NCBI GenBank assembly: GCA_902790475.1
Contig: CADASG010000002.1
Coordinates: 1-57,664 of the forward strand
Source of the DNA: an uncultured Ruminococcus sp.
GTDB taxonomy: Bacteria; Bacillota; Clostridia; Oscillospirales; Acutalibacteraceae
Reading direction: 5' to 3'
DNA: 57,664 nucleotides
Shown here: positions 45,358 through 57,664 of the stretch, piece after piece
Layout: each line of letters starts with the position of its first letter
Numbering within the stretch: the stretch's first letter is position 1
The notes under the pieces: model-generated
What the model saw: only the letters and a program-made list of their open reading frames with translations
The model's database searches: none
Told to the model about the DNA's origin: nothing
Position numbers and translations under genes: made by a program

Positions 45358-45440
45358 CCGTTTGAGGAATCTTGTTAAAACATTACAAAGTTCAAAATAT
45401 ATTATTGTATAATTGTACAGATAAAATTTTTTGAAAAGGC

Positions 45441-45469
45441 TTGAAGTTTTTTCGTGTTTATTGTATAAT
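45441..45469 (+). promoter_or_regulatory. Sigma-A type promoter of the CBM26-like surface protein
   Basis: TTGAAG at 45441-45446 and TATAAT at 45464-45469 are separated by 17 bases, about 75 bases before the ATG at 45544. A second TATAAT-like word (TGTATAATTG) occurs near 45405. Confidence 0.82.
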
Positions 45470-45543
45470 TAGGTTACTGAGATATTGAGATAATAGGTAA
45501 ATCTATGTCTCGGAAAATATATTTTTTTAGGAGGCTAAAAAAA

Positions 45544-46683
45544 ATGTTCAAAAAATTGGCAAGTATTGCGCTTGCCGCTTTGATGGTTACCGGTACTGCT
45601 TCGATCGCGAACGCTGCCGTTGCCGAAGAAGCGGTTGCCGCTCCCGCTGAGGAGGCAGTTGTTGGCGCAAACGATGACAGCGCTGTAGGAGCAAATGCGG
45701 GTTCCGATACCGGCGCCGGTTCAAAAATTTACTTTGAGGTTCCTTCTTTCTGGAACAACTACCAGGACATCCGCATTTATCTCTATGAGGTTGGCGGCGA
45801 TCCTATTATCAAATGGAATTCCAAAAAGGGTAAGATGACCGACGAAGGCGGCAATAAGGTTTCCTTTGATATGTCAAAGTATCCTATGTCCGACAGCAAG
45901 AACTACGCTTGTATCTTCCTGACAAATACAGAAGCACAGACATGCGACCTGTTTATCGGTAATCCCTGTATCGGCGATACAGCTTACTGCACAGGTGAGA
46001 ATAATAAGATCGAGAACACCGAGGACTCCAACAAAAAGAGTTGGGAGGTTAAGTGGAGAAACGCTGATCCCAACAGATGGGGCGTGCCTCTCGCAATCAC
46101 TTCCATCGGTAACATCGTAGGTTCTGCTCTTCCTCCGGGACAGACCAAGTATGACCTCTTCCTGACCTTCCTTAAGGATACAGGTAAGAAGGGCGTTGAC
46201 AACGCTGTTAAGTTCAACCACAAGAGCAAGCAGCAGACTATCGACGAGGCTGCAAAAACTCTCGGCTTAGGTAAAGACGACGTTAAAAAGGCTATTGAGG
46301 AGTCCGGCAGAAAAGCTCAGCTTGATTGGGATGAGAGAAAGTCCAGTCTTCCCGGCGGTTCCTCCGCAGGCAGCGGCGGCAGCTCAAACGGCGGCGGTAG
46401 CTCAAACGGCGGCAGCAGCTCAAACGGCGGCAGCAGCTCAAACGGCGGCAGCAGCACCACAGGCGGCGGCAGCAGCACTACAGGCGGCGGCAGCAGCACT
46501 ACTGGCGGCAGCAGCACTTCAGGCGGCGGCAGCAGCACTTCAGGCGGCGGCTCCTCTACAGCAGGCGGCAGCACCGGTTCCGTAACTTCCGGTCAGGAAA
46601 CCACTATCTTCTTCGTATTCGGCGGCGTAATGCTCGCAGCAGCAGGCGTTATCTTCCTCGCAAGAAAGAGAAGAGAGTTCTAA
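45544..46683 (+). CDS. Secreted surface protein with a CBM26-like domain and C-terminal anchor
   Basis: A 379-residue protein with a signal peptide (about 1-24, cut near ANA), an acidic Ala-rich spacer, and a domain at about 60-140 opening KIYFEVPSFWNNYQDIRIYL and ending QTCDLFIG. That order of aromatic residues resembles starch-binding CBM26 modules. A helical Lys-rich region follows, then about 75 residues of SSNGG and SSTTGGG repeats, a membrane helix (about 352-372) and the terminal RKRREF. There is no LPxTG motif. Binding of starch or another glucan is inference. AGGAGG lies nine bases before the ATG. It is a single-gene unit. Confidence 0.8.
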   Translation: MFKKLASIALAALMVTGTASIANAAVAEEAVAAPAEEAVVGANDDSAVGANAGSDTGAGSKIYFEVPSFWNNYQDIRIYLYEVGGDPIIKWNSKKGKMTDEGGNKVSFDMSKYPMSDSKNYACIFLTNTEAQTCDLFIGNPCIGDTAYCTGENNKIENTEDSNKKSWEVKWRNADPNRWGVPLAITSIGNIVGSALPPGQTKYDLFLTFLKDTGKKGVDNAVKFNHKSKQQTIDEAAKTLGLGKDDVKKAIEESGRKAQLDWDERKSSLPGGSSAGSGGSSNGGGSSNGGSSSNGGSSSNGGSSTTGGGSSTTGGGSSTTGGSSTSGGGSSTSGGGSSTAGGSTGSVTSGQETTIFFVFGGVMLAAAGVIFLARKRREF

Positions 46684-46701
46684 TCAATCTTAGACAAATC
46701 A

Positions 46702-46734
46702 AAATCCATCGGTTTTTTGCCGGTGGATTTTTTT
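46702..46734 (+). terminator. Terminator after the CBM26-like surface protein
   Basis: AATCCATCGG pairs with CCGGTGGATT (one T-G wobble and one unpaired base), followed by a run of T residues. Confidence 0.78.
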
Positions 46735-46784
46735 ATGCTTGTATTATGATAACAGTATTTGTTTTATATATGTTGTTATCCGAT

Positions 46785-46815
46785 AAAACAAAGGCTGCCC
46801 GGATGGACAGCCTTT
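46785..46815 (-). terminator. Terminator of the hydrogenase operon
   Basis: On the minus strand AAAGGCTG (46815-46808) pairs with CAGCCTTT (46797-46790), followed by GTTTT. It lies 17 bases after the hydA stop. Confidence 0.82.
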
Positions 46816-46831
46816 TGATTAGCAGTTATGA

Positions 46832-48571
46832 TTATCTCTTTCTTTCAACGTATGAGGTGTGGAGCAGTTCGTGTGCTAAGTGTGAACCGGGCTTCTCCAG
46901 ATACTCGTCGTAGATAGCCTTGATCTCGGGATTCTCGTGGGACTTTCTGTAGGTAAGAGCCAAATCATCCTCATACAGCGCCTTTGCACGCAGTGCCTTG
47001 AGATCGGTGAAGTTGCGAACGTGACCGGGCTGAATGGGCTGACCGCCGCCGTTTACGCAGCCGCCGGGACAGCACATGACCTCGATGAACTGATAGGGAG
47101 ACTCGCCTGCTCTGATCTGATCAAGCAGCTTTGCAGCGTTCTTCAAGCCTGAGGTTACAGCAACCTTGACTTCCTTGCCTGCGATGTTGTAGGTAGCTTC
47201 CTTGATGTCCTCGGTGCCGCGGACTTCCTTGTAGTCCACATCCTTCAGATCCTCGCCTGTAAGAACGTCGGCAACTGTACGGAGAGCAGCCTCCATAACG
47301 CCGCCTGTCGCGCCGAAGATGGTACCCGCGCCGGTGCCGATGCCCATGATGGGATCAAAGTCCTCGTCGGGAAGATCGGTGAACTGGATACCTGCGGTTT
47401 TGATCATCTTTGCAAGCTCGCGTGTGGAGATCGAAATATCGTTATCGGGCATACCGTCGCGTCCCTGGTCGTCACGCTTGATCTCAAACTTCTTTGCGAT
47501 ACAGGGCATTACAGATACTACAACTATATCCTTGGGGTTGATGCCGGTTTTCTCTGCATAATAGGATTTGATCATAGCGCCCTGCATCTGCTGGGGTGAC
47601 TTACAGGTTGACAGATGCGGGATCAAATCGGGATAGTAGTACTCACAGAACTTGATCCAGCCGGGTGAGCACGAGGTGATCATCGGCAGAGTACCGCCGT
47701 TCTGAACACGCTGAATGAACTCGGTGCCCTCTTCCATAATTGTGAGGTCGGCGCCGAAGTTGGTGTCGAATACCTTGTCAAAGCCGAGCATTTTGAGCGC
47801 TGCAACCATCTTGCCCTTAACGTTAGAGCCGATGGGCATATCAAAGCATTCGCCCAGAGTTGCGCGGATAGAGGGAGCGGTGTGAACAACGACGTGCTTG
47901 GTGGGATCGGCGATAGCCTCGAATACCTTATCGGTGTCGTCGCGCTCAACCAAAGCGCCTGTGGGACATACAACTGTACACTGACCGCAGCTTACGCAGG
48001 CAACGTTGTCCAGTTCCTGATCGAACGCACAGCCGATCATGGAGTCAAAGCCGCGGTTGTTAGCGCCGATGACGGAAACATACTGCTGCTTACAAGCTGC
48101 TACGCAGCGACGGCAAAGGATACACTTGTTGTTGTTGCGCACCAGATGAAGAGTGCTGTGATCCTCTTTGCGGATGGGATCCTCTCCGCCCAAATACTTC
48201 TTCTCGTTAACGCCGTACTCAACGCAGAGCTTCTGCAGCTCGCAGTTGGTGTTTTTGGGGCAGGACAGGCATTTTTTATCGTGATTTGAGAGCAAAAGCT
48301 CCAGATTCATCTTTCTGTATTTGCGGATCTGAGGTGTATTTGTAAAGATTTCTGTACCCTCGCGGTCGATGGGATATACACAGGCAGCTACAAGGCTTCT
48401 CGCGCCCTTGACCTCGCACAGACACATACGGCAAGCGCCGATTTCGTTGATTTCTTTTAAATAGCAAAGGGTCGGAACTCTGATACCGAATTTGTGGCAG
48501 GCTTCAAGGATAGTGGTGTTTTTCTCGACCTGATAGTCTTTGCCGTTGATTTTAATATTCAACATTTCCAT
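46832..48571 (-). CDS. hydA: [FeFe] hydrogenase catalytic subunit HydA (HndD type)
   Basis: Catalytic subunit of an NAD(P)- and ferredoxin-linked hydrogenase making or using H2. The 579 residues comprise an N-terminal [2Fe-2S] domain (CYLKEIGACRMC-type Cys pattern, about 36-65), a His-Cys3 cluster region, two [4Fe-4S] motifs (CILCRRC and CVSCGQCTVVCPTGA, about 150-210), and the H-cluster domain with L1 ITSCSPGWIKF (about 297), L2 MPCIAKKFE and L3 CCPGGCVNGGGQP. L1 has Ser after the Cys where many enzymes have CysCys. The size matches the M3 architecture. AAAGGAG precedes the ATG. It is the last gene of a five-gene operon. Confidence 0.96.
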   Translation of the reverse strand: MEMLNIKINGKDYQVEKNTTILEACHKFGIRVPTLCYLKEINEIGACRMCLCEVKGARSLVAACVYPIDREGTEIFTNTPQIRKYRKMNLELLLSNHDKKCLSCPKNTNCELQKLCVEYGVNEKKYLGGEDPIRKEDHSTLHLVRNNNKCILCRRCVAACKQQYVSVIGANNRGFDSMIGCAFDQELDNVACVSCGQCTVVCPTGALVERDDTDKVFEAIADPTKHVVVHTAPSIRATLGECFDMPIGSNVKGKMVAALKMLGFDKVFDTNFGADLTIMEEGTEFIQRVQNGGTLPMITSCSPGWIKFCEYYYPDLIPHLSTCKSPQQMQGAMIKSYYAEKTGINPKDIVVVSVMPCIAKKFEIKRDDQGRDGMPDNDISISTRELAKMIKTAGIQFTDLPDEDFDPIMGIGTGAGTIFGATGGVMEAALRTVADVLTGEDLKDVDYKEVRGTEDIKEATYNIAGKEVKVAVTSGLKNAAKLLDQIRAGESPYQFIEVMCCPGGCVNGGGQPIQPGHVRNFTDLKALRAKALYEDDLALTYRKSHENPEIKAIYDEYLEKPGSHLAHELLHTSYVERKR

Positions 48572-48589
48572 AGTATTCTCTCCTTTCCC

Positions 48590-50398
48590 TTAGCCTTTAT
48601 AAATTGCTTTGAACTTACATGTATCAATACAAGCGCCGCACTTGATGCACTTGTTGGTGTCGATTTCGTAAGCTTCTTTCTTCTTTCCGGGAGCTACGTA
48701 GTCTGTTACGTGGATAGCGCCCGCGGGACACTTCTTAGCGCACATTCCGCAGCCGAAGCACTTGTCCTTCTCGATCGTGTAGGACAGCAGCTCCTTACAT
48801 ACGCCTGCAGGACACTTCTTGTCTACAACGTGAGCGATGTACTCGTCGCGGAAATAGTGCAGGGTGGACAGAACGGGGTTGGGAGCTGTCTGACCCAAGC
48901 CGCACAGCGAGTTTGCCTTGATGAAGTTGCTCAGCTCTTCCATCTCGTCGAGCATCTCGAGGGTGCCCTGACCCTTGGTGATCTTGTCGAGCATTTCAAG
49001 CAGTCTCTTGGTTCCTACACGGCAGGGAGTACACTTGCCGCAGCTCTCGTCAACGGTGAATTCAAGATAGAACTTGGCGATATCGACCATACAGTTGTCC
49101 TCGTCCATAACGATCAGACCGCCGGAGCCCATCATTGAGCCGATAGCCAGCAGGTTATCGTAGTCGATCGGAACGTCAAGGTGCTGCTCGGGGATACATC
49201 CGCCGGAGGGACCGCCTGTCTGAGCTGCCTTGAATTTTTTGCCGTTGGGGATACCGCCGCCGATCTCAAATACGATCTCGCGAAGTGTGGTACCCATGGG
49301 GATCTCAACCAGACCTGTGTGATTGATCTTGCCGCCGAGCGCGAATACCTTGGTACCCTTGCTCTTCTCGGTACCCATGGAAGCGAACCAGTCGGCTCCC
49401 TTGAGGATGATCTGTGCGATATTGGCGTAGGTTTCTACGTTGTTGAGGATAGTGGGCTTCTGATACAGACCCTTGACCGCAGGGAACGGGGGACGGGGAC
49501 GGGGCTCGCCGCGCTTGCCCTCGATGGAGGTCATCAGCGCTGTTTCCTCGCCGCATACGAACGCGCCTGCGCCGAGACGAAGCTCTAAATCAAAGTCAAA
49601 GCCGGTGCCGAAGATGTCCTTGCCCAAAAGTCCGTATTCACGTGCCTGGTCGATAGCGATCTGCAGACGCTCTACGGCGATGGGGTACTCCGCACGAACG
49701 TATACACGACCCTGATTTGCGCCGATCGCGTAGCCTGCGATAGCCATTGCTTCGATCAGGGAGTGGGGGTCGCCCTCGAGTACGGAACGATCCATGAACG
49801 CGCCGGGGTCGCCCTCGTCGGCGTTACAGCATACATATTTTTGATCTGCGTCATTAGCCGCAGCAAATTTCCACTTTAAGCCGGTGGGGAAGCCCGCGCC
49901 GCCTCTGCCGCGCAAGCCGGAATCGAGGATAGTCTGGATGACCTCGTCGGGGGTCATTTCGGTGAGTACCTTTCCCAGAGCGGCGTAACCGTCCTGAGCG
50001 ATGTAATCCTCGATCTTTTCGGGATCGATAACGCCGCAGTTGCGCAGAGCTACACGGCACTGCTTCTCATAGAAAGCAGTTTTGTTCAGGGACTTGATGG
50101 TGTTGTCCTCTACGGTCTCCTGATAGAGCAGACGGGTAACGATCCTGCCCTTTAACAGGTGCTCCTCAACGATCTCGGGGATATCGTCCACCTTAACCAT
50201 TGAATAGAAGCTGCCCTCGGGATAAACGACCATGATGGGACCGAGCGCGCACAGACCGAAGCAGCCTGTGGTGATAACGTTGACCTCGTCCTTCAAGCCC
50301 TGTCTTTCGATCTCTTCCTTGAGCTTATTAACAATTGTCAAGCTGTTTGAGGAGGTACAACCTGTTCCGCCGCAAACCAGTACATTAGAACGATACAT
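48590..50398 (-). CDS. hydB: NuoF-like hydrogenase subunit HydB (HndC type)
   Basis: Flavin subunit that binds FMN and NAD(H) and is the proposed bifurcation site in trimeric hydrogenases. The 602 residues have an N-terminal thioredoxin-like [2Fe-2S] domain (VLVCGGTGCTSS, about 7-18), the FMN/NADH motifs GLRGRGGAGFPTGLKW (about 170) and CNADEGDPGAFMDR, a [4Fe-4S] site at ESCGKCTPCRVG (about 465), and a C-terminal two-cluster ferredoxin domain (CFGCGMCAKKCPAGA, CIKCGACIDTC). This fused layout matches HydB/HndC. AAGGAGG sets the ATG. It sits directly before hydA. Confidence 0.96.
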   Translation of the reverse strand: MYRSNVLVCGGTGCTSSNSLTIVNKLKEEIERQGLKDEVNVITTGCFGLCALGPIMVVYPEGSFYSMVKVDDIPEIVEEHLLKGRIVTRLLYQETVEDNTIKSLNKTAFYEKQCRVALRNCGVIDPEKIEDYIAQDGYAALGKVLTEMTPDEVIQTILDSGLRGRGGAGFPTGLKWKFAAANDADQKYVCCNADEGDPGAFMDRSVLEGDPHSLIEAMAIAGYAIGANQGRVYVRAEYPIAVERLQIAIDQAREYGLLGKDIFGTGFDFDLELRLGAGAFVCGEETALMTSIEGKRGEPRPRPPFPAVKGLYQKPTILNNVETYANIAQIILKGADWFASMGTEKSKGTKVFALGGKINHTGLVEIPMGTTLREIVFEIGGGIPNGKKFKAAQTGGPSGGCIPEQHLDVPIDYDNLLAIGSMMGSGGLIVMDEDNCMVDIAKFYLEFTVDESCGKCTPCRVGTKRLLEMLDKITKGQGTLEMLDEMEELSNFIKANSLCGLGQTAPNPVLSTLHYFRDEYIAHVVDKKCPAGVCKELLSYTIEKDKCFGCGMCAKKCPAGAIHVTDYVAPGKKKEAYEIDTNKCIKCGACIDTCKFKAIYKG

Positions 50399-50412
50399 GC
50401 TTTTCCTCCTTA

Positions 50413-50796
50413 TTACTCTTTCATGTCATCCATGGCGCCGATCGTGTACTCGGTCACCACGTTTTTATTTACAAGGTGGTCGTTCACGATCTTGGGAACC
50501 ATCTCGGGAGCCACCTTGACATAAGTAACCTTTTCCTGACCCGGTATCTCAACCTCAACGACCGGCTCAAACTGACAGATGCCTATGCAGCCTGTCTGGG
50601 TTACGGTGATATCTTCCGTTAAGCCGCGCTTGGATATCTCTTCAACAAACGCGTTAAGCACGGGTCTTGCGCCCGCCGCGATTCCGCAGGTCGCCATGCC
50701 GACAAGCACGCGCGCTGCGTTGGGTTTTTCTTTTCTAAGATCGAGATCTGCTCTTGCCTTATCTCTGATTGCCTTTAATTCGGCTAAAGATTTCAT
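50413..50796 (-). CDS. [2Fe-2S] thioredoxin-like hydrogenase subunit (HndB type)
   Basis: A 127-residue protein with a basic N-terminal helix (MKSLAELKAIRDKARADL) and a thioredoxin-like ferredoxin fold binding one [2Fe-2S] cluster through Cys in VGMATCGIAAGARP (about 38) and TQTGCIGICQFEP (about 85-97). This is the HndB arrangement in NADP-reducing and bifurcating hydrogenases, where it is thought to pass electrons among subunits. The ATG overlaps the stop of the upstream ATPase gene by four bases (ATGA), so stoichiometric, coupled expression is expected. Confidence 0.9.
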   Translation of the reverse strand: MKSLAELKAIRDKARADLDLRKEKPNAARVLVGMATCGIAAGARPVLNAFVEEISKRGLTEDITVTQTGCIGICQFEPVVEVEIPGQEKVTYVKVAPEMVPKIVNDHLVNKNVVTEYTIGAMDDMKE

Positions 50797-51347
50797 AATT
50801 TCGCACCTCCGTATAATAATTGGGTTTGTTCTTCTAAATAGCTACCGATCCATTCCAGCACATCGGGGTTATCCAGACTGACGTCCTCCAGCACCTGCCT
50901 CAGCTCGCGAGTGTCAAGCGTAAAGGAATGCTCGTCGTTTGAGCGGATAAACACAAAGTCGATATCGGGATTGCACCTGATCAATATGGTGATCGTAGAG
51001 TTTATGTCCCCCAAAGGGGTCATATCCACATGGCTTTTCACGTAGCGGGCAGTGGTGGTCGTACCCTTGCCCGGTTCGGATTCAATGCTGAAGCTGCCGC
51101 CGGTTTGTTCGGCGCTGAGCTTGAACAGCGGAACACCCAGACCAACCTTGCGGGTGGTTCGTGTGGTAAAAAACGGATCGATCACCTGACTGACCTGCTC
51201 AGCAGTCATGCCGCAGCCGTCGTCTGCGATGGATATGGTCAGTGAATCGCTGCGCTCGCTTTCAGTCACCGTTATTGTTATCAAACGCGCGTCGGCTCTG
51301 ACAGAGTTCTGCGCAACGTCCATAACGTTCAATGACAATTCACGCAT
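50793..51347 (-). CDS. GHKL-type ATPase inside the hydrogenase operon
   Basis: A 184-residue ATP-binding protein with the histidine-kinase-like ATPase fold: N box DVAQNSVRA (about 10-18), G1 box ADDGCGM (about 42-48), the FFTTRTTRKVGLGVPLFKL F/G2 region (about 58-76) and GKGTTTT. There is no HisKA phospho-acceptor domain and no sensor or membrane part. A C-terminal extension of about 70 residues (RCNPDIDFVFIRSNDEHSF) has no clear match. It could be an anti-sigma-factor-like or unusual kinase. It shares one base with the upstream hydC stop (TAATG) and overlaps the HndB-type gene. A gene at this position recurs, as I recall, in C. thermocellum. Confidence 0.87.
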   Translation of the reverse strand: MRELSLNVMDVAQNSVRADARLITITVTESERSDSLTISIADDGCGMTAEQVSQVIDPFFTTRTTRKVGLGVPLFKLSAEQTGGSFSIESEPGKGTTTTARYVKSHVDMTPLGDINSTITILIRCNPDIDFVFIRSNDEHSFTLDTRELRQVLEDVSLDNPDVLEWIGSYLEEQTQLLYGGAKL

Positions 51348-51847
51348 TACGATTTTTGATATTTGTTAAGAATGTAGGGAACATCCTCTACAGTCAGTCT
51401 TCCGTAAACGTCGTCGTTGACGGTGATTACGGGAGCCAGACCGCACGCGCCAATGCAGCGGCAGGCTGTGAGCGAGAATTTTCCGTCGGGGGTGCATTCC
51501 TCCGCGCCGATACCAAGCTGCTCGGAAATCTTGTTAAGGATTTCGCCGGAGCCCTTTACGTAGCAGGCGGTGCCCAAACAAACCGAAATGTTGTATTTGC
51601 CTTTAGGTGAAAGCGCAAACTGTGAATAGAAGGTGGATACTCCGTATACCTCCTCAACAGATACGCCCAGTCCCTCTGCTACCATTGTCTGCACTTCAAG
51701 CGGCAGATAACCGTAGATCTCCTGAGCTTCCTGCAAAACAGGCATTACAGCGCCGGGATCGTCCTTGTGACGGGCGATGGCTTCTTTCAGCTTTGCTTCC
51801 TGCTCAGGTGTTCCCGCAAAGGGAATGTTACTGATTTTCTTTTGCAT
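51347..51847 (-). CDS. hydC: NuoE-like hydrogenase subunit HydC (HndA type)
   Basis: A 166-residue subunit with an N-terminal helical domain and a thioredoxin-like fold carrying one [2Fe-2S] cluster. The four ligands are visible in VCLGTACYVKG (about 90-100) and TACRCIGACGLAP (about 130-142). GVSTFYSQFALSPKGKY is the usual NuoE segment. It transfers electrons between the NAD-linked HydB and HydA. GGGAGG precedes the ATG. It is the first gene of the operon hydC-ATPase-hndB-hydB-hydA, transcribed from a promoter at 51967-51995. Confidence 0.95.
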   Translation of the reverse strand: MQKKISNIPFAGTPEQEAKLKEAIARHKDDPGAVMPVLQEAQEIYGYLPLEVQTMVAEGLGVSVEEVYGVSTFYSQFALSPKGKYNISVCLGTACYVKGSGEILNKISEQLGIGAEECTPDGKFSLTACRCIGACGLAPVITVNDDVYGRLTVEDVPYILNKYQKS

Positions 51848-51966
51848 CGTTTTTCCTCCCTGAATAAGTTTTGTGCAGTTTGTATTATCCTGATATTTGA
51901 AAAAAATCCTGCGTTTTATCCGAGAATTCTAAAAGGTCTAAAACAATCGCACAACTATCAATCTGT

Positions 51967-51995
51967 ATTATACCATGAATTCGTTTAAATGTCTA
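51967..51995 (-). promoter_or_regulatory. Promoter of the hydCBA operon
   Basis: On the minus strand TAGACA (51995-51990) and TATAAT (51972-51967) are separated by 17 bases. The leader to the hydC ATG is about 110 bases. No further structure is evident in it. Confidence 0.75.
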
Positions 51996-52036
51996 CAATT
52001 AATTTACCTTTTTAATCCGAAATATTGACAAAATTT

Positions 52037-52067
52037 AAGGAAACGCGGATTATCCGGAGGTTTCCTT
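52037..52067 (-). terminator. Terminator between the two hydrogenase operons
   Basis: AAGGAAAC (52037-52044) pairs with GTTTCCTT (52060-52067), and CGGAT pairs with ATCCG inside, followed on the minus strand by AAATTTT. It separates the sensory operon from the hydCBA promoter. Confidence 0.72.
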
Positions 52068-52109
52068 GTGTGTTTTTTATACTATTTTTATATTCTGAAA
52101 AACAAGCTC

Positions 52110-52832
52110 TCAGCTGCTTATCCGGGCGTCAAGAGCTTTGATGACCGCTTCGGCAGTGAGCTCGTCGAGCGTCAGCGTGTTCTCCGCGTCGCGCATGTTT
52201 TCAAGGTAATGCGCGTCGGAGCAGCTGACGATATTCATATCATTCAGTACGGGGTGCTTTTTCAGCAAATCCGGGAGCTTTGTTTTGTCCGCGACCTCGG
52301 CGGTGACAAAGCCGCAGGCAGGGTCTATCTCTCCGAGCACTGCGAGTATCGAGAGGCTGTCGCGGTCGATGTGCGCAGGATAGCATATGCCGCCGAAGCG
52401 CTTTACCTCGCGGTAAACCTCCGTGATCGGAATAAAGCTTGCCGGCAGCAGCAGGTGCTCGATCTCTCCGACTTCTTCATCAAGCTCGTTCATAATGACC
52501 TGTCTGCCGTAGATCTCTTCTTTATTTTTGATTTTGATTCGGTGTGAGTCAACATATTCATTCCACTCCAGCGCCGCTTCAAGGCAGGGGAACAGGCAGA
52601 CCGCGTGGATATCCTCGGCGGTAGTCAGCTCCATGCCCGGAATGACCAGCACTCCGTTTTTTTCGCCTGCTCGCATGGTCGCTTCGCAGTTCAGACAGGT
52701 GTTGTGGTCAGTGAGGGCGATCACGTCAAGCCCGAGGAGGCTCGCCATTCCCGTGATGTTGTTTGGAGTCATGTCCATGTCGCCGCAGGGTGACAGGCAG
52801 GAGTGAAGATGAAGGTCGTAATAGTATGACAT
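52110..52832 (-). CDS. PHP-domain phosphoesterase
   Basis: A 240-residue metal-dependent phosphoesterase of the PHP superfamily (histidinol phosphatase / DNA polymerase III PHP type). Metal-binding motifs are DLHLHSCLSP (about 6-15), ALTDHNT (about 39-45), IPGMELTT, YPAHIDRDS and SCSDAHYLEN (about 205). The substrate cannot be read from sequence; nucleotide or small-phosphoester substrates are typical. It lies four bases after a DRTGG gene on the minus strand and ends the operon holding the divergent H-cluster protein. That linkage suggests a signalling or regulatory role rather than histidine synthesis. Confidence 0.88.
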   Translation of the reverse strand: MSYYYDLHLHSCLSPCGDMDMTPNNITGMASLLGLDVIALTDHNTCLNCEATMRAGEKNGVLVIPGMELTTAEDIHAVCLFPCLEAALEWNEYVDSHRIKIKNKEEIYGRQVIMNELDEEVGEIEHLLLPASFIPITEVYREVKRFGGICYPAHIDRDSLSILAVLGEIDPACGFVTAEVADKTKLPDLLKKHPVLNDMNIVSCSDAHYLENMRDAENTLTLDELTAEAVIKALDARISS

Positions 52833-52836
52833 CGGC

Positions 52837-53163
52837 TTACAGCAAATTGCTCAGACTCGCCGCGACCTCGTAGGCGGTAGCGTCGGTGGTGAGGATATTC
52901 ACTCCGTGGATCTCAGCCTTGCGTCTCGCTTCTTCATCGAGGGGCGCGTTCTCAACCAGCACGATGCAGCTGACGTCGGCAAGCGTAGCTACGGCGATCG
53001 AGTTGATGTTGCCCATCACGGTCAGCCATGCGCTGTCGGCAGGAGCTCTGCTCATTACCCAGCTTAGCAGATCGCCGATGTAGCAGTCCCTGATCTCGCG
53101 GTCCGGCTCGTCGCCGTTAAGGATTTTCATATCAAATCTTTTAGCGAATTCCTGTACTGTCAT
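52837..53163 (-). CDS. DRTGG-domain protein (second copy)
   Basis: A 108-residue single-domain protein resembling the DRTGG domain found between the ATPase and catalytic domains of some phosphotransacetylase-like proteins and in CBS-DRTGG proteins. Segments VQEFAKRFDMKILNGDEPD, DCYIGDLLSWVM and CIVLVENAPLDEEARRKAE fit the family; the DRTGG word itself is not present. Function is unknown, with small-ligand binding a common guess. It follows the divergent H-cluster gene by 12 bases and precedes the PHP gene by four. A paralogue sits at 54885. Confidence 0.8.
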   Translation of the reverse strand: MTVQEFAKRFDMKILNGDEPDREIRDCYIGDLLSWVMSRAPADSAWLTVMGNINSIAVATLADVSCIVLVENAPLDEEARRKAEIHGVNILTTDATAYEVAASLSNLL

Positions 53164-53175
53164 AATAAAACCTCT

Positions 53176-54450
53176 TTATATCGTGTTTTTCAGTTGATCG
53201 TAAACGTTTTGGATCTTGGCTTTAAGGCGGTGGATACAGTCGCTTTCCTTAGCCTTGCCGCGCACCATATCCTCAGCCATGGCGCGGCAGGTGGGAGCGC
53301 CGCAGGAGCCGCAGTCCAGCCCGGGCAGACCTGCCAGTATCCCCTCCATCTCGGACATCATGCTCATCGCTTTAACGATGTCCTCGTCGAGGCGGTAAAT
53401 GTCCGCGTCATATTCAAGCTCGTTTTCCCACATCATCTTGCTTATCTGATCTTCTTCGAGGTGGTTCATCGAAACGGGCAGGTATTTTCTCAGAGTGCTG
53501 ATGCGTGCTCTGGCGACATATGGATTTTCCACAGTGAGAACACCGCCCACGCAGCCGCCGGAGCAGGCGTTAAGCTCGATGAATTCCACGTCGCGGATAT
53601 GCTCGTCCTCAAGCTCCTCGAGCACGCGGATGACGTTTTCGATGCCGTCGGCAGCTAAGTATTTATCGCCGAGCATCGCCGCCGCTTCTCCGCCCGAGGT
53701 CGCCCAGCCTATGCCGATCAAGCCCGACTGCGAGATGTTTTCCACCTCGGTGAGGTGATCCATGGCAAGGGTCAGCTCAGGATAGATTTTTGATATCGCG
53801 ATCGCGCCGTCAACTGCGGAGGATTCCGAGTAGTTGGGCGAATGGATCTCCGTTACCTTTGCGGGGCAGGGGGTTATGAAAAATACGCCGATCTCTTCCG
53901 AGGACAGTCCTGTTTTTTTCATTGCCTCACGGCGTGCGATCCTCGCGGTGACCTCCATGGGCGCTTTAAGCGGCATAACGTTGTCGCACAGCTCGGGGAA
54001 ACGGGTTTTGATCAGCCTGACCACAGCCGGGCAGGCTGAACTGATTATCGGCTTGTTCAGCTTGTTTTCCTTTATGAGCTTGCGTGTAGCTTCGCTGACA
54101 AGCTCCGCTCCGCGCGAAACCTCAAACACGTCGTCAAAGCCGATTTTTTTAAGCCCCGTCAGTACGATGTCTACGTTGTCCAGACGGTTGAACTGTCCGA
54201 ACAGCGCCGGGGCAGGGATAGCTACCTTGTATTTGTAGCCCTGTATTTCTTCAAGGGTCGAGGTGTGCGCCTTCTTTGCGTGATGAGGGCAGATCCTGAT
54301 ACACTCGCCGCAGTCTATACACCGCTCGGAAAGGATCTTTGCCTTGCCCCCGTGTACCCTGATAGCCTCCGTGGGGCAGCGCTTCAAGCAGTTTGTGCAG
54401 CCGCAGCAAAGATCGGCCTCCAGCTCGACCGAGTGAAAGTATTTATTCAT
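53176..54450 (-). CDS. Divergent H-cluster protein (sensory-type [FeFe] hydrogenase, group C/D-like)
   Basis: A 424-residue protein with an N-terminal two-[4Fe-4S] ferredoxin domain (CCGCTNCLKRCPTEA and CIDCGECIRICPHHA, about 15-60) and an [FeFe]-hydrogenase-like domain with L1 SSACPAVVRL (about 136), L2 TPCPAKVTE and L3 NACSGGCVGG. L1 has Ala where catalytic enzymes carry the proton-relay Cys, as described for sensory HydS proteins. The C-terminus has a further Fe-S motif, DCGSCGAPTCRAMAEDM (about 381-397). No PAS domain is present. The RsbW-like and DRTGG neighbours suggest H2 or redox sensing; this is inference. Confidence 0.88.
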   Translation of the reverse strand: MNKYFHSVELEADLCCGCTNCLKRCPTEAIRVHGGKAKILSERCIDCGECIRICPHHAKKAHTSTLEEIQGYKYKVAIPAPALFGQFNRLDNVDIVLTGLKKIGFDDVFEVSRGAELVSEATRKLIKENKLNKPIISSACPAVVRLIKTRFPELCDNVMPLKAPMEVTARIARREAMKKTGLSSEEIGVFFITPCPAKVTEIHSPNYSESSAVDGAIAISKIYPELTLAMDHLTEVENISQSGLIGIGWATSGGEAAAMLGDKYLAADGIENVIRVLEELEDEHIRDVEFIELNACSGGCVGGVLTVENPYVARARISTLRKYLPVSMNHLEEDQISKMMWENELEYDADIYRLDEDIVKAMSMMSEMEGILAGLPGLDCGSCGAPTCRAMAEDMVRGKAKESDCIHRLKAKIQNVYDQLKNTI

Positions 54451-54459
54451 GCTTACTCC

Positions 54460-54888
54460 TTATTGCGGAACATTGACCGTCAGATACAGCTTTGTTCCCT
54501 CGCCTATGGTGGTGTCTATGCGCATGCTGTCGGTGTATTTTTTGATATTGGGCAGTCCCATTCCGGCGCCGAAGCCCAGTGTGCGCACGTTGTCGGGCGC
54601 TGTGGAAAAGCCTTCCTGCATCGCCTTGTCAACGTCGGGTATGCCCGGTCCCTTGTCGGCGAGCAGGACCTCGATACGGTCGGGATAGATATCAACGTCG
54701 CAGTAACCGCCCTCGGCGTGGATGACCATGTTGATTTCCGCTTCATACATGGCGATAGCCACACGGCGGATAACGTCTCCGTTGAATCCGAGAGATTTCA
54801 GGCGCTTTTTGACCGAGCCGCTCGCTTCGCCGGCGCGGGTAAAATCCTCGCTTGAAACCTCATAGTGAAGATGAATTGCGTTGCTCAT
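54460..54888 (-). CDS. RsbW-like ATP-binding protein (anti-sigma-factor/kinase fold)
   Basis: A 142-residue GHKL-fold protein of the RsbW/SpoIIAB type, which elsewhere bind sigma factors or phosphorylate anti-anti-sigma proteins. The N box is EAEINMVIHAEGG (about 50-62), the G1 box LADKGPGIPDVDKAM (about 76-90) and the G2 region GFGAGMGLPNIKKYTDSM (about 105-122). No partner sigma factor or anti-anti-sigma gene lies in the window. It overlaps the upstream DRTGG gene by four bases (ATGA) and precedes the divergent H-cluster gene by nine bases, so the three are likely made together. Confidence 0.9.
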   Translation of the reverse strand: MSNAIHLHYEVSSEDFTRAGEASGSVKKRLKSLGFNGDVIRRVAIAMYEAEINMVIHAEGGYCDVDIYPDRIEVLLADKGPGIPDVDKAMQEGFSTAPDNVRTLGFGAGMGLPNIKKYTDSMRIDTTIGEGTKLYLTVNVPQ

Positions 54889-55232
54889 ACCTTTGTTCCT
54901 CCCGACAGTCCGTTTGTGTACAGAAGACCGCAGGCGGTAAACATTCTATAGCGAGTTTTCAGCAGGGTGATACCGCGGCTCTTTGCCAGATCGACTATAC
55001 CTTTGTCGGGATCCTTGCCGCGCACGAACACGATGCACGCCATGTCCATCATCTCGGCGGTGCGCACCACCTGAGGGTTTACAAGTCCGGTCAAAAGCAC
55101 GGACTGATCCTTAACGAATGCGAGCACGTCGCTCATCATGTCGGAACCGCAGGCGGTTTTGATCTCCTGTTGCAGATCGCCTTCGCAAATAACGTCTCCT
55201 TCAAGAATATCAATAATGTCTTTTACAATCAT
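54885..55232 (-). CDS. DRTGG-domain protein (first copy)
   Basis: A 115-residue protein with the DRTGG-like fold: MIVKDIIDILEGDVICEGDL at the N-terminus, ACGSDMMSDVLAFVKDQSVL in the middle, and CIVFVRGKDPDKGIVDLAKS later, aligning with the paralogue at 52837. The LLTGLVNPQVVRTAEMMDM segment is typical. It is the first gene of the operon. GAAAGGAAG precedes the ATG. Function is not established; ligand binding that modulates the neighbouring ATPase is a guess from context. Confidence 0.82.
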   Translation of the reverse strand: MIVKDIIDILEGDVICEGDLQQEIKTACGSDMMSDVLAFVKDQSVLLTGLVNPQVVRTAEMMDMACIVFVRGKDPDKGIVDLAKSRGITLLKTRYRMFTACGLLYTNGLSGGTKV

Positions 55233-55314
55233 ATAATTACTTCCTTTCCGAGCAGATAGTCAAAGGTTTCTTGATAACCGACAAAAGCCGAAAACGGCGC
55301 GGTATCTCCAAATA

Positions 55315-55343
55315 ATTATATCATATTTGTTTGACAAGTACAA
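55315..55343 (-). promoter_or_regulatory. Promoter of the sensory operon
   Basis: On the minus strand TGATATAAT (an extended -10 box, 55323-55315) lies 17 bases after TTGTAC (55343-55338), a poor -35 box. The extended -10 may compensate. The rest of the gap 55233-55538 holds only this promoter and the terminator of the next gene. Confidence 0.6.
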
Positions 55344-55469
55344 TTAGCAATATTTATATAATAATCGGATTTTTTTGACATATTTGTCATATGGGAAACG
55401 GCAGGGGATTTATTTATCGAATAATCATTTTCGCTTACTATAGCTTTCGGAAAATTCAAAATATGCAGA

Positions 55470-55509
55470 CTAAAACGGTCAGGCAGGAGAAGTACCCTGT
55501 CTGACCGTT
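55470..55509 (-). terminator. Terminator after the dockerin LRR gene
   Basis: AACGGTCAGGCAGG (55474-55487) pairs with CCTGTCTGACCGTT (55496-55509) with one mismatch or wobble; on the minus strand it ends in TTTTAG. Confidence 0.82.
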
Positions 55510-55538
55510 GTGTTATTTATCAATAACCGGTTTCTAAA

Positions 55539-56852
55539 TCACTTTGTCACCGTTTGAATGTATTTGTCATAGCCTGTCCAGCCGGAGGTGTAGCGGTTCA
55601 GGATACCGGCGTCGGCGCCGTTCACCTTACCGTCGCGGTTAAGGTCTGCGGCGTCCATGTCCTTGATCTTATCGGCGTAGCCTTCCCAACCCGAGGTATA
55701 GCGGTTGAGCAGACCCGCGTCCGCGCCGTTTACCTTGTCGTCACCGTTCACGTCGCCGGTAACAACCGTTTGGGATTCTGTCTCTATAAAGGCAAAACCA
55801 TTTTCGTTGGCATAGGCTTCCGCCGCGCTGCCTTTCTTACCGTAAATGGTGAAAGAATCAACTTTTTTATATTTATAATTATCAATGTCAAAGTAGTAGC
55901 CAAACGCTTTTTCGCCGATGTTAGTCACACTGTCGGGGATGGTGACGCTTGTCAGTCCCGTGCAGTCGTTAAACGCATTATTGCCAATGCTTGTCACACT
56001 GTCGGGGATGGTGACGCTTGACAGTCCTGTGCAGCCACAAAACGCAAAAGAACCAATGCTTGTCACACTGTCGGGGATGGTGACGCTTGTCAGTCCCGTG
56101 CAGCCGGGAAACGCACAATCGCCAATACTTGTCACGCTGTCGGGAATGACTAAATCAGTAACAAGTTCATTATTCAAATAGAGCTTATTCGCATTGTATA
56201 AGGGATTTGCAGAACTGTCACCAAATGAAATACTGCACCACGCGGCAAGATCACGGATGTATACGCCGGTCAACTCCCAGCAGCCGGTAAACGCTTCATA
56301 GCCGATACTCGTCACGCTTTCGGGGATGGTAACGCTTGTCAGTTCCGAGCAGTTGCAAAACGTTTGAAAAGCGATACTTGTCACGCCGTCGGGGATAGTG
56401 ACGCTTGTCAGTCCCGTACAGTCGCTAAACGCTTGTTCGCCGATATACGTCACGCTGTCGGGGATTGTGACGCTTTTCAGTCCCGTGCAGTATTCAAACG
56501 CATTGTTGCCAATGTTCGTCACGCTGTCGGGGATTGTAACGCTTGTCAGTTTCTTGCAATCGTAAAATGCATAACTGCCAACGCTCGTCACGCCGTCCTC
56601 AATAACAACGCTTGTGACCCGATCGCCCCACGGAGTCTCACGATAGAAATAATTCCCCATGATACCGCTGCCGCTGACAGTCAGTGTGCCGTCATCATCC
56701 AGCGTCCAAGTGCAATCGCCTGTGGTGCCGCTTTCACCGACGTCGCTGTTTGTTTCCGCCGCGAACGCAGTTACGGGTAAGGATGTCACCGCACTGCAAC
56801 ACAGCAGCACGGACAGCAGTATCGCCGTGATTTTTCTCATTGCTTTTGTCAT
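55539..56852 (-). CDS. Secreted BspA-type leucine-rich-repeat protein with type I dockerin
   Basis: A 437-residue secreted protein. A signal peptide (about 1-32, with a cut near AFA) leads to a short beta region (TGDCTWTLDDDGTLTVSGSG), then about nine 23-residue LRR_5 units of LTSVTIPDSVTSIGxxAFxxC type (about 75-340), interrupted by the island RDLAAWCSISFGDSS. The C-terminus is a two-repeat dockerin: DVNGDDKVNGADAGLLNRYT and DLNRDGKVNGADAGILNRYT, each with a calcium loop. That predicts docking to a cohesin scaffold. I start at ATG 56852 after AGGTGGAG; a longer frame to 56918 adds a non-signal N-terminus. Confidence 0.9.
   Translation of the reverse strand: MTKAMRKITAILLSVLLCCSAVTSLPVTAFAAETNSDVGESGTTGDCTWTLDDDGTLTVSGSGIMGNYFYRETPWGDRVTSVVIEDGVTSVGSYAFYDCKKLTSVTIPDSVTNIGNNAFEYCTGLKSVTIPDSVTYIGEQAFSDCTGLTSVTIPDGVTSIAFQTFCNCSELTSVTIPESVTSIGYEAFTGCWELTGVYIRDLAAWCSISFGDSSANPLYNANKLYLNNELVTDLVIPDSVTSIGDCAFPGCTGLTSVTIPDSVTSIGSFAFCGCTGLSSVTIPDSVTSIGNNAFNDCTGLTSVTIPDSVTNIGEKAFGYYFDIDNYKYKKVDSFTIYGKKGSAAEAYANENGFAFIETESQTVVTGDVNGDDKVNGADAGLLNRYTSGWEGYADKIKDMDAADLNRDGKVNGADAGILNRYTSGWTGYDKYIQTVTK
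55915..56600 (-). repeat. Tandem 69-base repeats encoding LRR units
   Basis: The word CACTGTCGGGGATGGTGACG and close variants recur roughly every 69 bases. The period equals 23 codons, matching the LRR_5 unit of the encoded protein. High base identity between units suggests recent duplication and possible copy-number variation. Confidence 0.85.
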
Positions 56853-56924
56853 ATGATCTCCACCTTTTGAATTATGCGCGGCGTTTTGTAAATGCCGCAT
56901 AGGTATGGTATATTCCATGCTTTT

Positions 56925-56953
56925 ATAATATCACATTAATGTCATGTACGCAA
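56925..56953 (-). promoter_or_regulatory. Candidate promoter of the dockerin LRR gene, with a palindrome in the spacer
   Basis: On the minus strand TTGCGT (56953-56948) and TATTAT (56930-56925, preceded by TG as an extended -10) are 17 bases apart. The spacer holds the palindrome ACATTAATGT, extended imperfectly to AT(C/G)ACATT on both sides, which could be an operator. Confidence 0.45.
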
Positions 56954-57100
56954 TCCAAATTTTAGTCATGATTTTTGGTGGATTTATACAAATAGGTGCG
57001 GTTGTCGCTTGATTTTAGTGTTTGATGAACATTTCTCTTATCATGTTGGGGCGAACCCATGTGTTCGCCCTCTGCGCCGACGCTGGTTCCCCGTTCGTAC

Positions 57101-57217
57101 GTCGATAGGAGCAGAATCGTTTGTTCTGCGCACAACGGCGCACACGCAGCCGCACCCCTACAAAATCAGTGAAATGTTTGTTGAAGAAACTACGGTAAGG
57201 CGGTGAACAAAAAGGCT
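57101..57217 (+). repeat. Intergenic dispersed repeat, copy 1
   Basis: Similar to 57446-57559 over about 115 bases: GTCGATA, GAACAGA-like and CAACGGCGCAC-like words, then CCCTACAAAA, GTGAAATGTTT, AAACTAC and GTAAGGCGGTGAAC in the same order. A reading frame crosses it on the minus strand (57015-57335), but it has no ribosome-binding site or recognisable domain and I do not call it a gene. Confidence 0.65.
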
Positions 57218-57406
57218 CCTTTAATAAAGGAGCTGTCAGCGCAGCTGACTGAGGATTCCTGAGCCGCTTTTTCACTAACGTCCGTTTTGTCCTAATGGAT
57301 TTTGACGTTAGGTAATATCGAATATTGTTCAACATAAAGATAACCTTCTGCCGTGTAAATCCTCCGTCGCGCCTTTAGGGCGCGCCACCTCCTTTGACAA
57401 AGGAGG
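57215..57406. repeat. Two short palindromes in the gene-free right end
   Basis: GCTCCTTT-AAT-AAAGGAGC (57215-57233) and CCTCCTTT-GAC-AAAGGAGG (57388-57406) share the CTCCTTT arm. GTCAGC-GCA-GCTGAC follows the first (57235-57249). Similar hairpins often flank intergenic repeats in Ruminococcus-like genomes, as I recall. From 56853 to 57664 I see no gene. Confidence 0.55.
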
Positions 57407-57445
57407 CTTTCGGTGCGGCGACATACGTTTTTTTCTTGTCCGCAT

Positions 57446-57559
57446 GTCGATAAGAACAGACCGTTTAGCGTAACAACCGCGGACGCGCAATGCGCGCCTC
57501 TACAAAACCAATGAAATGTTTATTTTAAAACTACTGTAAGGCGGTGAACCAAAAAGCCT
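57446..57559 (+). repeat. Intergenic dispersed repeat, copy 2
   Basis: Second copy of the element at 57101-57217. The best-conserved part is CTACAAAACCAATGAAATGTTT followed by ACTACTGTAAGGCGGTGAAC. It lies in the same orientation about 345 bases downstream. Confidence 0.65.
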
Positions 57560-57664
57560 TCTCTTGGGAGCAATGTCAACAACTTAAGCTCTATCGTTTT
57601 GATGGTATTTAACAGAATGATGTTTTTTAGTGCGTGGGAAAGAGCGGTTGGGTCTAATGGGAAC

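What the first reader, a model, noticed from the sequence alone, without database searches (positions are those of the whole stretch)
46832..55232. Paired hydrogenase operons: a possible H2/redox sensing module beside the enzyme it may control
Seen in sequence: five genes (DRTGG, RsbW-like ATPase, divergent H-cluster protein, DRTGG, PHP phosphoesterase) form one minus-strand operon with 4-12-base spacing or overlaps, followed by a terminator and a promoter, then hydC-ATPase-hndB-hydB-hydA. Established: sensory [FeFe]-hydrogenase-like proteins and RsbW-type kinases exist. Inference: the upstream operon senses H2 or redox state and signals through ATP-binding proteins, possibly to a sigma or anti-sigma system, with the PHP enzyme acting on a small signal. 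Similar blocks occur, as I recall, in C. thermocellum, but their function is not settled.
Basis: partly seen in the sequence, partly recalled or inferred. Interest (0 to 1): 0.75.

Follow-up and report, generated by a model that had tools for sequence, protein, structure and literature searches.

The report
Hydrogen-sensing gene block beside hydrogenase genes
A block of five small genes, one of them an odd hydrogenase-like protein thought to sense hydrogen, travels as a unit through fermenting bacteria next to the enzymes that balance their electrons, and gene fusions now suggest which of its proteins work in pairs.

Summary
On the minus strand, DRTGG (DrA), RsbW-like ATPase, a group D [FeFe]-hydrogenase-like protein (HydS), a second DRTGG (DrB) and a PHP phosphoesterase form a tight operon (55232-52110). 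A hairpin and a promoter-like site follow, then hydC-HATPase-hndB-hydB-hydA. A group D HydS upstream of a bifurcating hydrogenase is already in print. In the papers I could search I found no account of the other four genes as one module, nor of its link to Rnf.

In 291 genomes of the class, HydS, PHP and DrA co-occur almost perfectly: 138, 135 and 138 genomes, 132 with all three. The exact order DrA-RsbW-HydS-DrB-PHP holds in 75 of 80 fetched loci. The module lies upstream of, divergent from, or nested inside the hyd operon. In another order it sits before rnfCDGEAB, usually without HydS. Natural fusions (DrA-RsbW, HydS-DrB) name physical pairs, and rex heads the operon in some genomes. H-cluster ligands, ATP sites and PHP metal-type residues are conserved.

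Best reading: a six-protein H2/redox signalling module that tunes ferredoxin/NADH enzymes (HydABC, Rnf). A sigma-factor output is not supported. The signal chemistry is untested.

The parts
54885..55232 (-). DrA, first DRTGG-domain protein, 115 aa
   Evidence: PF07085 34.4 bits; D31 and S34 in 79 of 79, T48 in 78 of 79; fused to the RsbW-like protein in L253, L259, L261
54460..54888 (-). RsbW/SpoIIAB-like ATPase, 142 aa
   Evidence: PF13581/PF02518; best solved relative anti-sigma F factor 1til E 1.2e-7; E49, N53, D78, G80, G82 and G105-FGAGMG 79 of 79
53176..54450 (-). HydS, group D (M2e) [FeFe]-hydrogenase-like protein, 424 aa
   Evidence: H-cluster ligands C140, C195, C296, C300 in 81 of 81 and C380, C383, C388 in 81 of 81, C405 in 80 of 81
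52837..53163 (-). DrB, second DRTGG-domain protein, 108 aa
   Evidence: PF07085 29.6 bits; homologous to DrA (hhalign 97.4 %); fused to the C-terminus of HydS in L263, L264
52110..52832 (-). PHP-type metal-dependent phosphoesterase, 240 aa
   Evidence: PF02811; H8, H10, D42, H43, E68, H76, H154, D206, H208 in 76 of 76
52037..52067 (-). terminator-like hairpin after the module
   Evidence: z -3.65; weak U run; not listed by the scan
51967..51995 (-). promoter-like site TAGACA-17-TATAAT, extended -10, before hydC
   Evidence: scan total not above shuffles
51347..51847 (-). hydC, NuoE-like subunit
   Evidence: PF01257 176.8 bits
50793..51347 (-). HATPase-2 (labelled HydE in my scripts), kinase-type ATPase without a phosphoacceptor domain, 184 aa; sixth member of the module
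   Evidence: PF02518; D10, N14, D42, G44, G46, G69, G71 in 63 of 63; single copy in 16 of 16 genomes
50413..50796 (-). hndB/HydD-like thioredoxin-fold subunit
   Evidence: PF01257 23.7 bits, just below cut-off 24.8
48590..50398 (-). hydB, NADH/FMN-binding subunit
   Evidence: PF01512, PF10589
46832..48571 (-). hydA, catalytic subunit of a bifurcating-type hydrogenase
   Evidence: NF040763 887.5 bits; best solved relative 7q4v HydA1 E 8e-214 (that 7q4v is A. woodii is recalled)
46790..46815 (-). terminator-like hairpin after hydA

Best explanation
The upstream operon plus the ATPase gene in the hyd operon is a six-protein H2/redox signalling module (DrA, RsbW-like ATPase, HydS, DrB, PHP, HATPase-2) that adjusts the enzymes balancing ferredoxin, NADH and H2. 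Proposed steps. (1) HydS reads H2 or electron pressure at its H-cluster and changes shape. (2) DrB, which is fused to HydS in one lineage, sits on HydS and passes the state on. (3) DrA, which is fused to the RsbW-like ATPase in another, is that ATPase's partner or substrate. (4) The RsbW-like ATPase and HATPase-2 give the output, on HydABC or, in other lineages, on Rnf, more likely on the enzyme or its assembly than on a sigma factor. (5) PHP removes the phosphate or small phosphorylated ligand that carries the signal. Shown here: gene content, order, co-occurrence, fusions, conserved active sites, Rnf and Rex linkage. Inferred: every functional step.
For: Co-occurrence in 291 genomes: HydS 138, PHP 135, DrA 138, all three 132 (compared). 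Five-gene order in 75 of 80 class loci, from 37 families and 62 genera. The module nests between hydC and HATPase-2/hndB/hydB/hydA in 9 of those 75 and lies divergent from the hyd operon in 3; on the HydS tree nested needs 2 changes and divergent 3 (FastTree). Fusions DrA-RsbW (3 loci, one family) and HydS-DrB (2 loci, one family). Module upstream of rnfC and on: L107, L244 with HydS; L198, L199, L268-L273 without it. HATPase-2 single copy in 16 of 16 genomes, found with rnf or with hyd. rex upstream in 5 of 100 loci (domains checked for one). Active-site residues invariant. Published: Tam HydS (group D) interconverts H+ and H2 with raised H2 affinity (PMC8163306 passages); H2 is reported to change its secondary structure, and its partners are unknown (PMC13104023 passages).
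Against: Adjacency to an enzyme is not obligatory: 14 of the 75 ordered class loci show no hyd or rnf gene in the fetched stretch, and in only 3 of these 14 does the stretch end within 2 kb after PHP. In single-contig genomes G025, G193 and G278 the best hydA lies over 300 kb from HydS. A3 hydrogenase occurs without HydS in 109 of 153 genomes. Genome-level exceptions: HydS without PHP in 4 and without DrA in 2, PHP without HydS in 1, DrA without HydS in 2. HydS is absent from the module in 8 rnf-linked loci (L198, L199, L268-L273), so the rest may work without it. No phosphoacceptor, substrate or DNA-binding output was found. Each fusion type comes from a single family. The C-terminal cluster is reported not to be reduced by H2 (PMC13104023 passages).
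Confidence: 0.55

Rival explanations
1. Assembly or repair module: the two kinase-fold ATPases act as chaperone-like switches and HydS as a scaffold or quality probe for building or activating HydABC and Rnf, with no signalling.
For: Nested inside the hyd operon in 9 of 75 ordered class loci; goes with two different flavin/Fe-S enzyme complexes; no transcriptional regulator in the module itself.
Against: HydS keeps all H-cluster cubane ligands and a sensor-type active site. A3 enzymes exist without HydS in 109 of 153 genomes.
Confidence: 0.2
2. Transcriptional partner-switching: the RsbW-like protein is an anti-sigma or sequestering factor released by the HydS signal.
For: Full-length similarity to SpoIIAB (E 1.2e-7); intact ATP site; the PAS-type HydS of R. 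albus appears to regulate synthesis of HydA2 (PMC11837493 passages); rex heads the operon in 5 of 100 loci, so some transcriptional control is likely there.
Against: Far below the SpoIIAB and RsbW family cut-offs; no sigma factor or STAS antagonist among the 22 commonest neighbour clusters of 100 loci, read by eye; the fusion partner is a DRTGG protein. A partner encoded far away was not looked for.
Confidence: 0.12
3. HydS is mainly a catalytic side subunit (an H2 valve for ferredoxin) and the other proteins regulate it, rather than HydS reporting to them.
For: The group D enzyme from T. mathranii turns over H2 (PMC8163306 passages); HydS occurs without the other module genes in one lineage, in 6 loci with nqrBCDEF in the stretch.
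Against: Published rates are low and the proton-transfer residues of group A are missing (PMC8163306 passages); 132 of 138 HydS genomes also hold both DrA and PHP.
Confidence: 0.1

Closest known systems
Group D (M2e) [FeFe]-hydrogenase upstream of a bifurcating hydrogenase (Tam HydS, Cthe_0335, Athe_1292)
   Same: Same protein class, same position and, from the published locus tags, the same spacing to hndB/hydB/hydA as here (my inference from PMC3561251 passages).
   Different: The passages I read name kinases (PMC3561251, PMC3608648), phosphatases, kinases and PAS sensors in general (PMC3492117) and, for T. [quoted passage not shown] The two DRTGG proteins, the PHP enzyme, the fusions and the Rnf link were not in them.
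PAS-type (group C, M2f) HydS of T. maritima and R. albus
   Same: Putative H2 sensor beside other hydrogenase genes; proton-transfer cysteine replaced (A131 in TmHydS, PMC10055695 passages).
   Different: It carries a PAS domain; this one has none and is surrounded by DRTGG, RsbW-like and PHP proteins.
SpoIIAB/RsbW partner-switching kinases
   Same: Small ATPase of that fold with a small partner protein encoded next to it.
   Different: The partner is a DRTGG protein, not STAS; no sigma factor seen nearby; below family cut-offs.
DRTGG domain of a manganese-dependent pyrophosphatase (3l2b, 3l31) and AF_1212 (2ioj)
   Same: The DrA profile matches them (E 0.0007 to 0.0017).
   Different: Here the domain stands alone and in two copies; the AMP/Ap4A ligands of 3l31/3l2b are recalled, not from a call.

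Membership tests
Group D (M2e) [FeFe]-hydrogenase | Four cysteine ligands of the H-cluster cubane | tested here: met
   C140, C195, C296, C300 in 81 of 81; which cysteines are ligands is recalled
Group D (M2e) [FeFe]-hydrogenase | C-terminal Cx2Cx4Cx16C cluster motif, no PAS domain | tested here: met
   C380, C383, C388 in 81 of 81, C405 in 80 of 81; PF04060 and no PAS in Pfam for the window protein; definition from PMC8163306 passages
Group D (M2e) [FeFe]-hydrogenase | Proton-transfer cysteine (C299) lost, M353 replaced by S or T | tested here: met
   ISSACP gives A139, ITPC gives T193 in the window; alignment to CpI numbering by motif, recalled
Group D (M2e) [FeFe]-hydrogenase | Assembles an H-cluster and reacts with H2 | not testable with these tools
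   needs purified protein
Group A3 electron-bifurcating hydrogenase HydABC | HydA over family cut-off with HydB and HydC in one operon | tested here: met
   NF040763 (NCBI calls it A6; equivalence to A3 recalled) 887.5 vs 765; PF01512, PF01257
Group A3 electron-bifurcating hydrogenase HydABC | Couples ferredoxin and NADH to H2 | not testable with these tools
   needs enzyme assay
SpoIIAB/RsbW anti-sigma kinase | Score over the curated cut-off | tested here: not met
   TIGR01925 50.7 vs 135; TIGR01924 24 vs 155
SpoIIAB/RsbW anti-sigma kinase | Sigma factor or STAS antagonist encoded nearby | tested here: not met
   the 22 commonest neighbour clusters in 100 loci, read by eye, show none; rarer neighbours not examined
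Sensor histidine kinase (HATPase-2) | Phosphoacceptor (HisKA-type) domain beside the ATPase | tested here: not met
   only HATPase_c families match in Pfam
PHP phosphoesterase | Metal-ligand residues of the PHP site | tested here: met
   nine His/Asp/Glu positions 76 of 76; which ones bind metal is recalled
DRTGG domain | Score over Pfam gathering threshold | tested here: met
   34.4 and 29.6 vs 25.2 bits

The most novel reading that the evidence does not exclude
One control device serves both great ferredoxin/NADH enzymes of anaerobes. The HydS-DrB sensor and the DrA-RsbW switch, with HATPase-2 as the part that touches the target and PHP as the off-step, set the activity of bifurcating hydrogenase in most lineages and of the ion pump Rnf in others. 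The carrier is a nucleotide or phosphate bound by the two DRTGG proteins at their shared D31-S34-T48 site. This would be a new class of post-translational redox signalling in fermenters.
Probability: 0.25. Interest if true: 0.82.

Novelty: new variant of a known kind. Interest (0 to 1): 0.6.

Why it matters
A 2026 study of group D HydS closes by saying that its interaction partners must be found to clarify the signalling mechanism (PMC13104023 passages). Here gene order, co-occurrence and natural fusions nominate those partners (DrB for HydS, DrA for the RsbW-like ATPase, plus PHP and HATPase-2) across 132 sampled genomes, so the question becomes a short list of pull-downs. If the module tunes both HydABC and Rnf, it is a candidate dial for H2, ethanol and acetate yields in rumen and gut fermenters and in biofuel strains.

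Tried and rejected
Sigma/anti-sigma output: looked for sigma factors and STAS proteins among the 22 commonest neighbour clusters of 100 loci, none seen. Rex control of this window: the best Rex-box-like matches in the two intergenic regions have 4 and 5 mismatches, so no Rex site is claimed here. RNA element: no Rfam match at gathering threshold in 44000-57664. HydS as a true NqrA replacement: six loci hold nqrBCDEF near a HydS without the other module genes and no NqrA passes the family cut-off in those six genomes, but the gap runs from 80 to 3977 bases, other genes intervene in some, and 13 further HydS genes of this kind have no nqr in the stretch, so I did not keep it as an explanation. 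Apparent 273-307 aa RsbW frames in L120, L129 and L144 overlapped DrA in another frame; only proteins with both domains in one reading frame were counted as fusions. Structure prediction of DrA and HATPase-2 was not available. Counts that rest on my typing handle lists from tables: (HydS at 298 bits or more, PHP at 87 bits or more, DrA without the two weak rows G242 and G243) and the A3 comparison, retyped and recounted.
Full report
What is in the window. Reading 5' to 3' on the minus strand the genes are DrA (55232-54885), RsbW-like ATPase (54888-54460), HydS (54450-53176), DrB (53163-52837) and PHP (52832-52110), with overlaps or gaps of -4, 9, 12 and 4 bases. After 262 bases with a hairpin (z -3.65) and a good promoter-like site come hydC, a second kinase-type ATPase (HATPase-2), an hndB-like gene, hydB and hydA. 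Family scans place every protein. HydA scores 887.5 bits against NCBI's NADH-dependent 'A6' model with cut-off 765; I call this type A3, the name used elsewhere (equivalence recalled). The closest named record is an uncultured Ruminococcus MAG (L118, HydS 87 % identical).

What HydS is. HydS has two ferredoxin-type clusters, an H-cluster domain and a C-terminal Cx2Cx4Cx16C motif, and no PAS domain. In the window plus 80 class loci the four cubane cysteines are invariant (81 of 81). The proton-relay cysteine is an alanine and the M353 position is a threonine in the window. These are the traits given for group D (M2e) in PMC8163306 (passages). It meets the sequence tests for group D; its H2 binding is likely but untested.

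The pairing with bifurcating hydrogenase is known. PMC3561251 (passages) states that sensory hydrogenases, including D M2e types such as Cthe_0335 and Athe_1292, usually lie upstream of trimeric bifurcating ones, often separated by a kinase. PMC3608648 says much the same for Thermoanaerobacter (passages), and PMC3492117 speaks of upstream phosphatases, kinases and PAS sensors (passages). The published tag numbers fit my gene order (HydS +5, +6, +7 for hndB, hydB, hydA); that is my inference. [quoted passage not shown] In the ordered loci here HydS is flanked by the RsbW-like ATPase and DrB, and the window's DrB has no helix-turn-helix match, so I suspect the AraC label is DrB misnamed; I did not test it.

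The genes come together. In 291 genomes of the class (sets typed and compared), HydS at 298 bits or more occurs in 138, the PHP protein in 135 and DrA in 138, and 132 have all three. Exceptions: HydS without PHP in 4 genomes and without DrA in 2, PHP without HydS in 1, DrA without HydS in 2. Of those last two, G132 ends at a contig edge, while G196 has a DrA-RsbW pair in mid-contig with no HydS after it. Group A3 hydrogenase is present in 132 of the 138 HydS genomes and in 109 of the other 153 (compared; Fisher p 1.4e-8). So HydS nearly always has an A3 hydrogenase in the genome, but not the reverse. Of 80 fetched class loci (80 of the 138 genomes, picked for diversity and contig length), 75 keep the exact five-gene order, from 37 families and 62 genera. 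The five exceptions are L046 and L075 (module split), L098 (no PHP), and L110 and L111 (HydS without the module). Of 80 named loci from genome contigs 71 are complete in order; 7 of the 9 others lie under 3.5 kb from a locus end and the other 2 are overlapping-frame calls. These named loci were the best matches, so they are close kin, and some repeat the class genomes. Of 20 loci from the phylum search, 10 have the five in order; the other 10 include the five fusion loci and loci with the module cut or with PHP or DrA not found.

Layouts. Among the 75 ordered class loci the module lies just upstream of hydC-HATPase-2 in 44, nested between hydC and HATPase-2/hndB/hydB/hydA in 9, divergent in 3, before HATPase-2 and rnf in 1, before HATPase-2 otherwise in 2, with hyd placed otherwise in the locus in 2 (in L068 the whole hyd operon ends 55 bases before it), and with no hyd or rnf in the fetched stretch in 14; in 11 of these 14 more than 4 kb after PHP was held, so most are real separations. 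On a FastTree tree of 121 HydS proteins the nested layout needs 2 changes, divergent 3, rnf 2. The same partnership in several rearranged forms argues for function.

Fusions. In three genomes of one family DrA and the RsbW-like protein are one 269-270 aa protein (L253, L259, L261). In two genomes of another family HydS and DrB are one 563-570 aa protein (L263, L264). Both domains are in one frame by my profiles. Pfam sees DRTGG at 455-555 of the HydS fusion but, at E 1e-5, not in the DrA half of the L253 fusion, where my DrA profile gives 140 bits. These may be two single events, but they name the pairs HydS-DrB and DrA-RsbW.

Rnf. In the order of G211 half of the sampled genomes have a HydS at E 1e-60 or better (59 of 118). 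Twenty-four of these were tested for the PHP protein and all 24 have it (two were known beforehand). Nine of their module loci were fetched (L198, L199, L244, L268-L273), and all nine run into HATPase-2 and rnfC (rnfC confirmed by NCBIfam for L198). In eight of the nine HydS is missing from the module and is encoded elsewhere. In 22 HydS loci fetched from this order the gene follows directly after an NAD-kinase-like gene in 5 (family checked for L231), and in L238 and L239 it is paired with a DrA alone. L107, from a different family, has the whole module, HATPase-2 and rnfCDGEAB in a row (rnfC confirmed). Seven of the 80 class loci have rnfC in the fetched stretch, six of them beyond the hyd genes. 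HATPase-2 is single copy in 16 of 16 genomes tested; it sits with rnf where the module does, although 9 of 10 such genomes also hold A3 hydrogenase elsewhere (G294 holds none at that threshold), and it stays with hyd in three genomes where the module lies elsewhere. It thus behaves as the module's sixth member.

Redox context. The commonest unrelated neighbour family occurs in 11 of 100 loci. rex, the NADH-responsive repressor (role recalled; domains checked for L253), occurs in 5 of 100, all among the 20 phylum loci and upstream of the module, with a 4-base overlap in three and gaps of 46 and 272 bases in the others. No Rex site is visible in this window.

Conserved chemistry. The RsbW-like and HATPase-2 ATP sites are invariant at the residues listed under parts (79 of 79 and 63 of 63), as are nine PHP metal-type residues (76 of 76). 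DrA and DrB are homologues and share an aspartate and a serine at 31 and 34 in every sequence (79 of 79, 78 of 78), and a threonine at 48 in 78 of 79 and 78 of 78. DrA's profile matches the DRTGG part of pyrophosphatase structures 3l2b and 3l31 and AF_1212. Whether the shared site binds a nucleotide or takes a phosphate cannot be told here.

How it most likely works. HydS senses H2 or electron pressure, DrB relays, the DrA-RsbW pair switches, HATPase-2 acts at the enzyme, PHP resets. Only gene-level facts are shown. I put 0.55 on the sensing-and-tuning model as a whole and much less on each step.

Novelty. Ten paper searches in an open-access library listed no paper on the DRTGG/RsbW-like/PHP set as HydS partners or on its Rnf link, as far as titles, abstract starts and the passages I opened show. 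One paper held both DRTGG and hydrogenase (PMC10102598, passages), about another protein. Subscription papers, including Calusinska 2010 which others cite for this layout, were not readable, so earlier notice cannot be excluded.

Noticed in passing
L110, L111, L228, L229, L230, L237: A HydS without the other module genes lies upstream of nqrBCDEF, and no nqrA passes the family cut-off in those genomes (G211, G269, G370, G347, G332, G294); the gap runs from 80 bases (L237) to 3977 (L230), with other genes between in some. A hydrogenase-linked Nqr pump is conceivable but unproven.
   Followed up: partly
window 48571-46832 (HydA) and 111 HydA in fetched loci: The window's HydA and 109 of 111 others read TSCSPGW where two read TSCCP: the cysteine recalled as the cubane ligand is a serine. 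The solved 7q4v HydA1 shares it, 8a6t does not.
   Followed up: partly
L263, L264, L266, L267: HydB of 1008-1020 aa; in L263 its C-terminal part matches Pyr_redox_2 and Fer4_20 flavoprotein domains.
   Followed up: partly
L200 (G226): RsbW-like, DrB, PHP, then hydC, HATPase-2, hndB, hydB and rnf genes in a row, with neither HydS nor DrA found.
   Followed up: partly
L201 (G196): A DrA-RsbW pair in mid-contig followed by unrelated genes, with no HydS, DrB or PHP in the stretch.
   Followed up: no
L053, L054; G021 (L046, L204): In one family the module is split between HydS and DrB by unrelated metabolic genes, or onto two contigs, leaving DrA-RsbW-HydS and DrB-PHP-hyd halves.
   Followed up: no
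window 55539-56918 and 45505-46683: Flanking genes look like a leucine-rich-repeat protein with a dockerin-like C-terminus and a Gly/Ser-repeat surface protein with a C-terminal anchor (by eye).
   Followed up: no
G000 C15:3785-5056: The window's own genome has one rnfC over cut-off on another contig, so it probably holds an Rnf complex besides hydABC.
   Followed up: no
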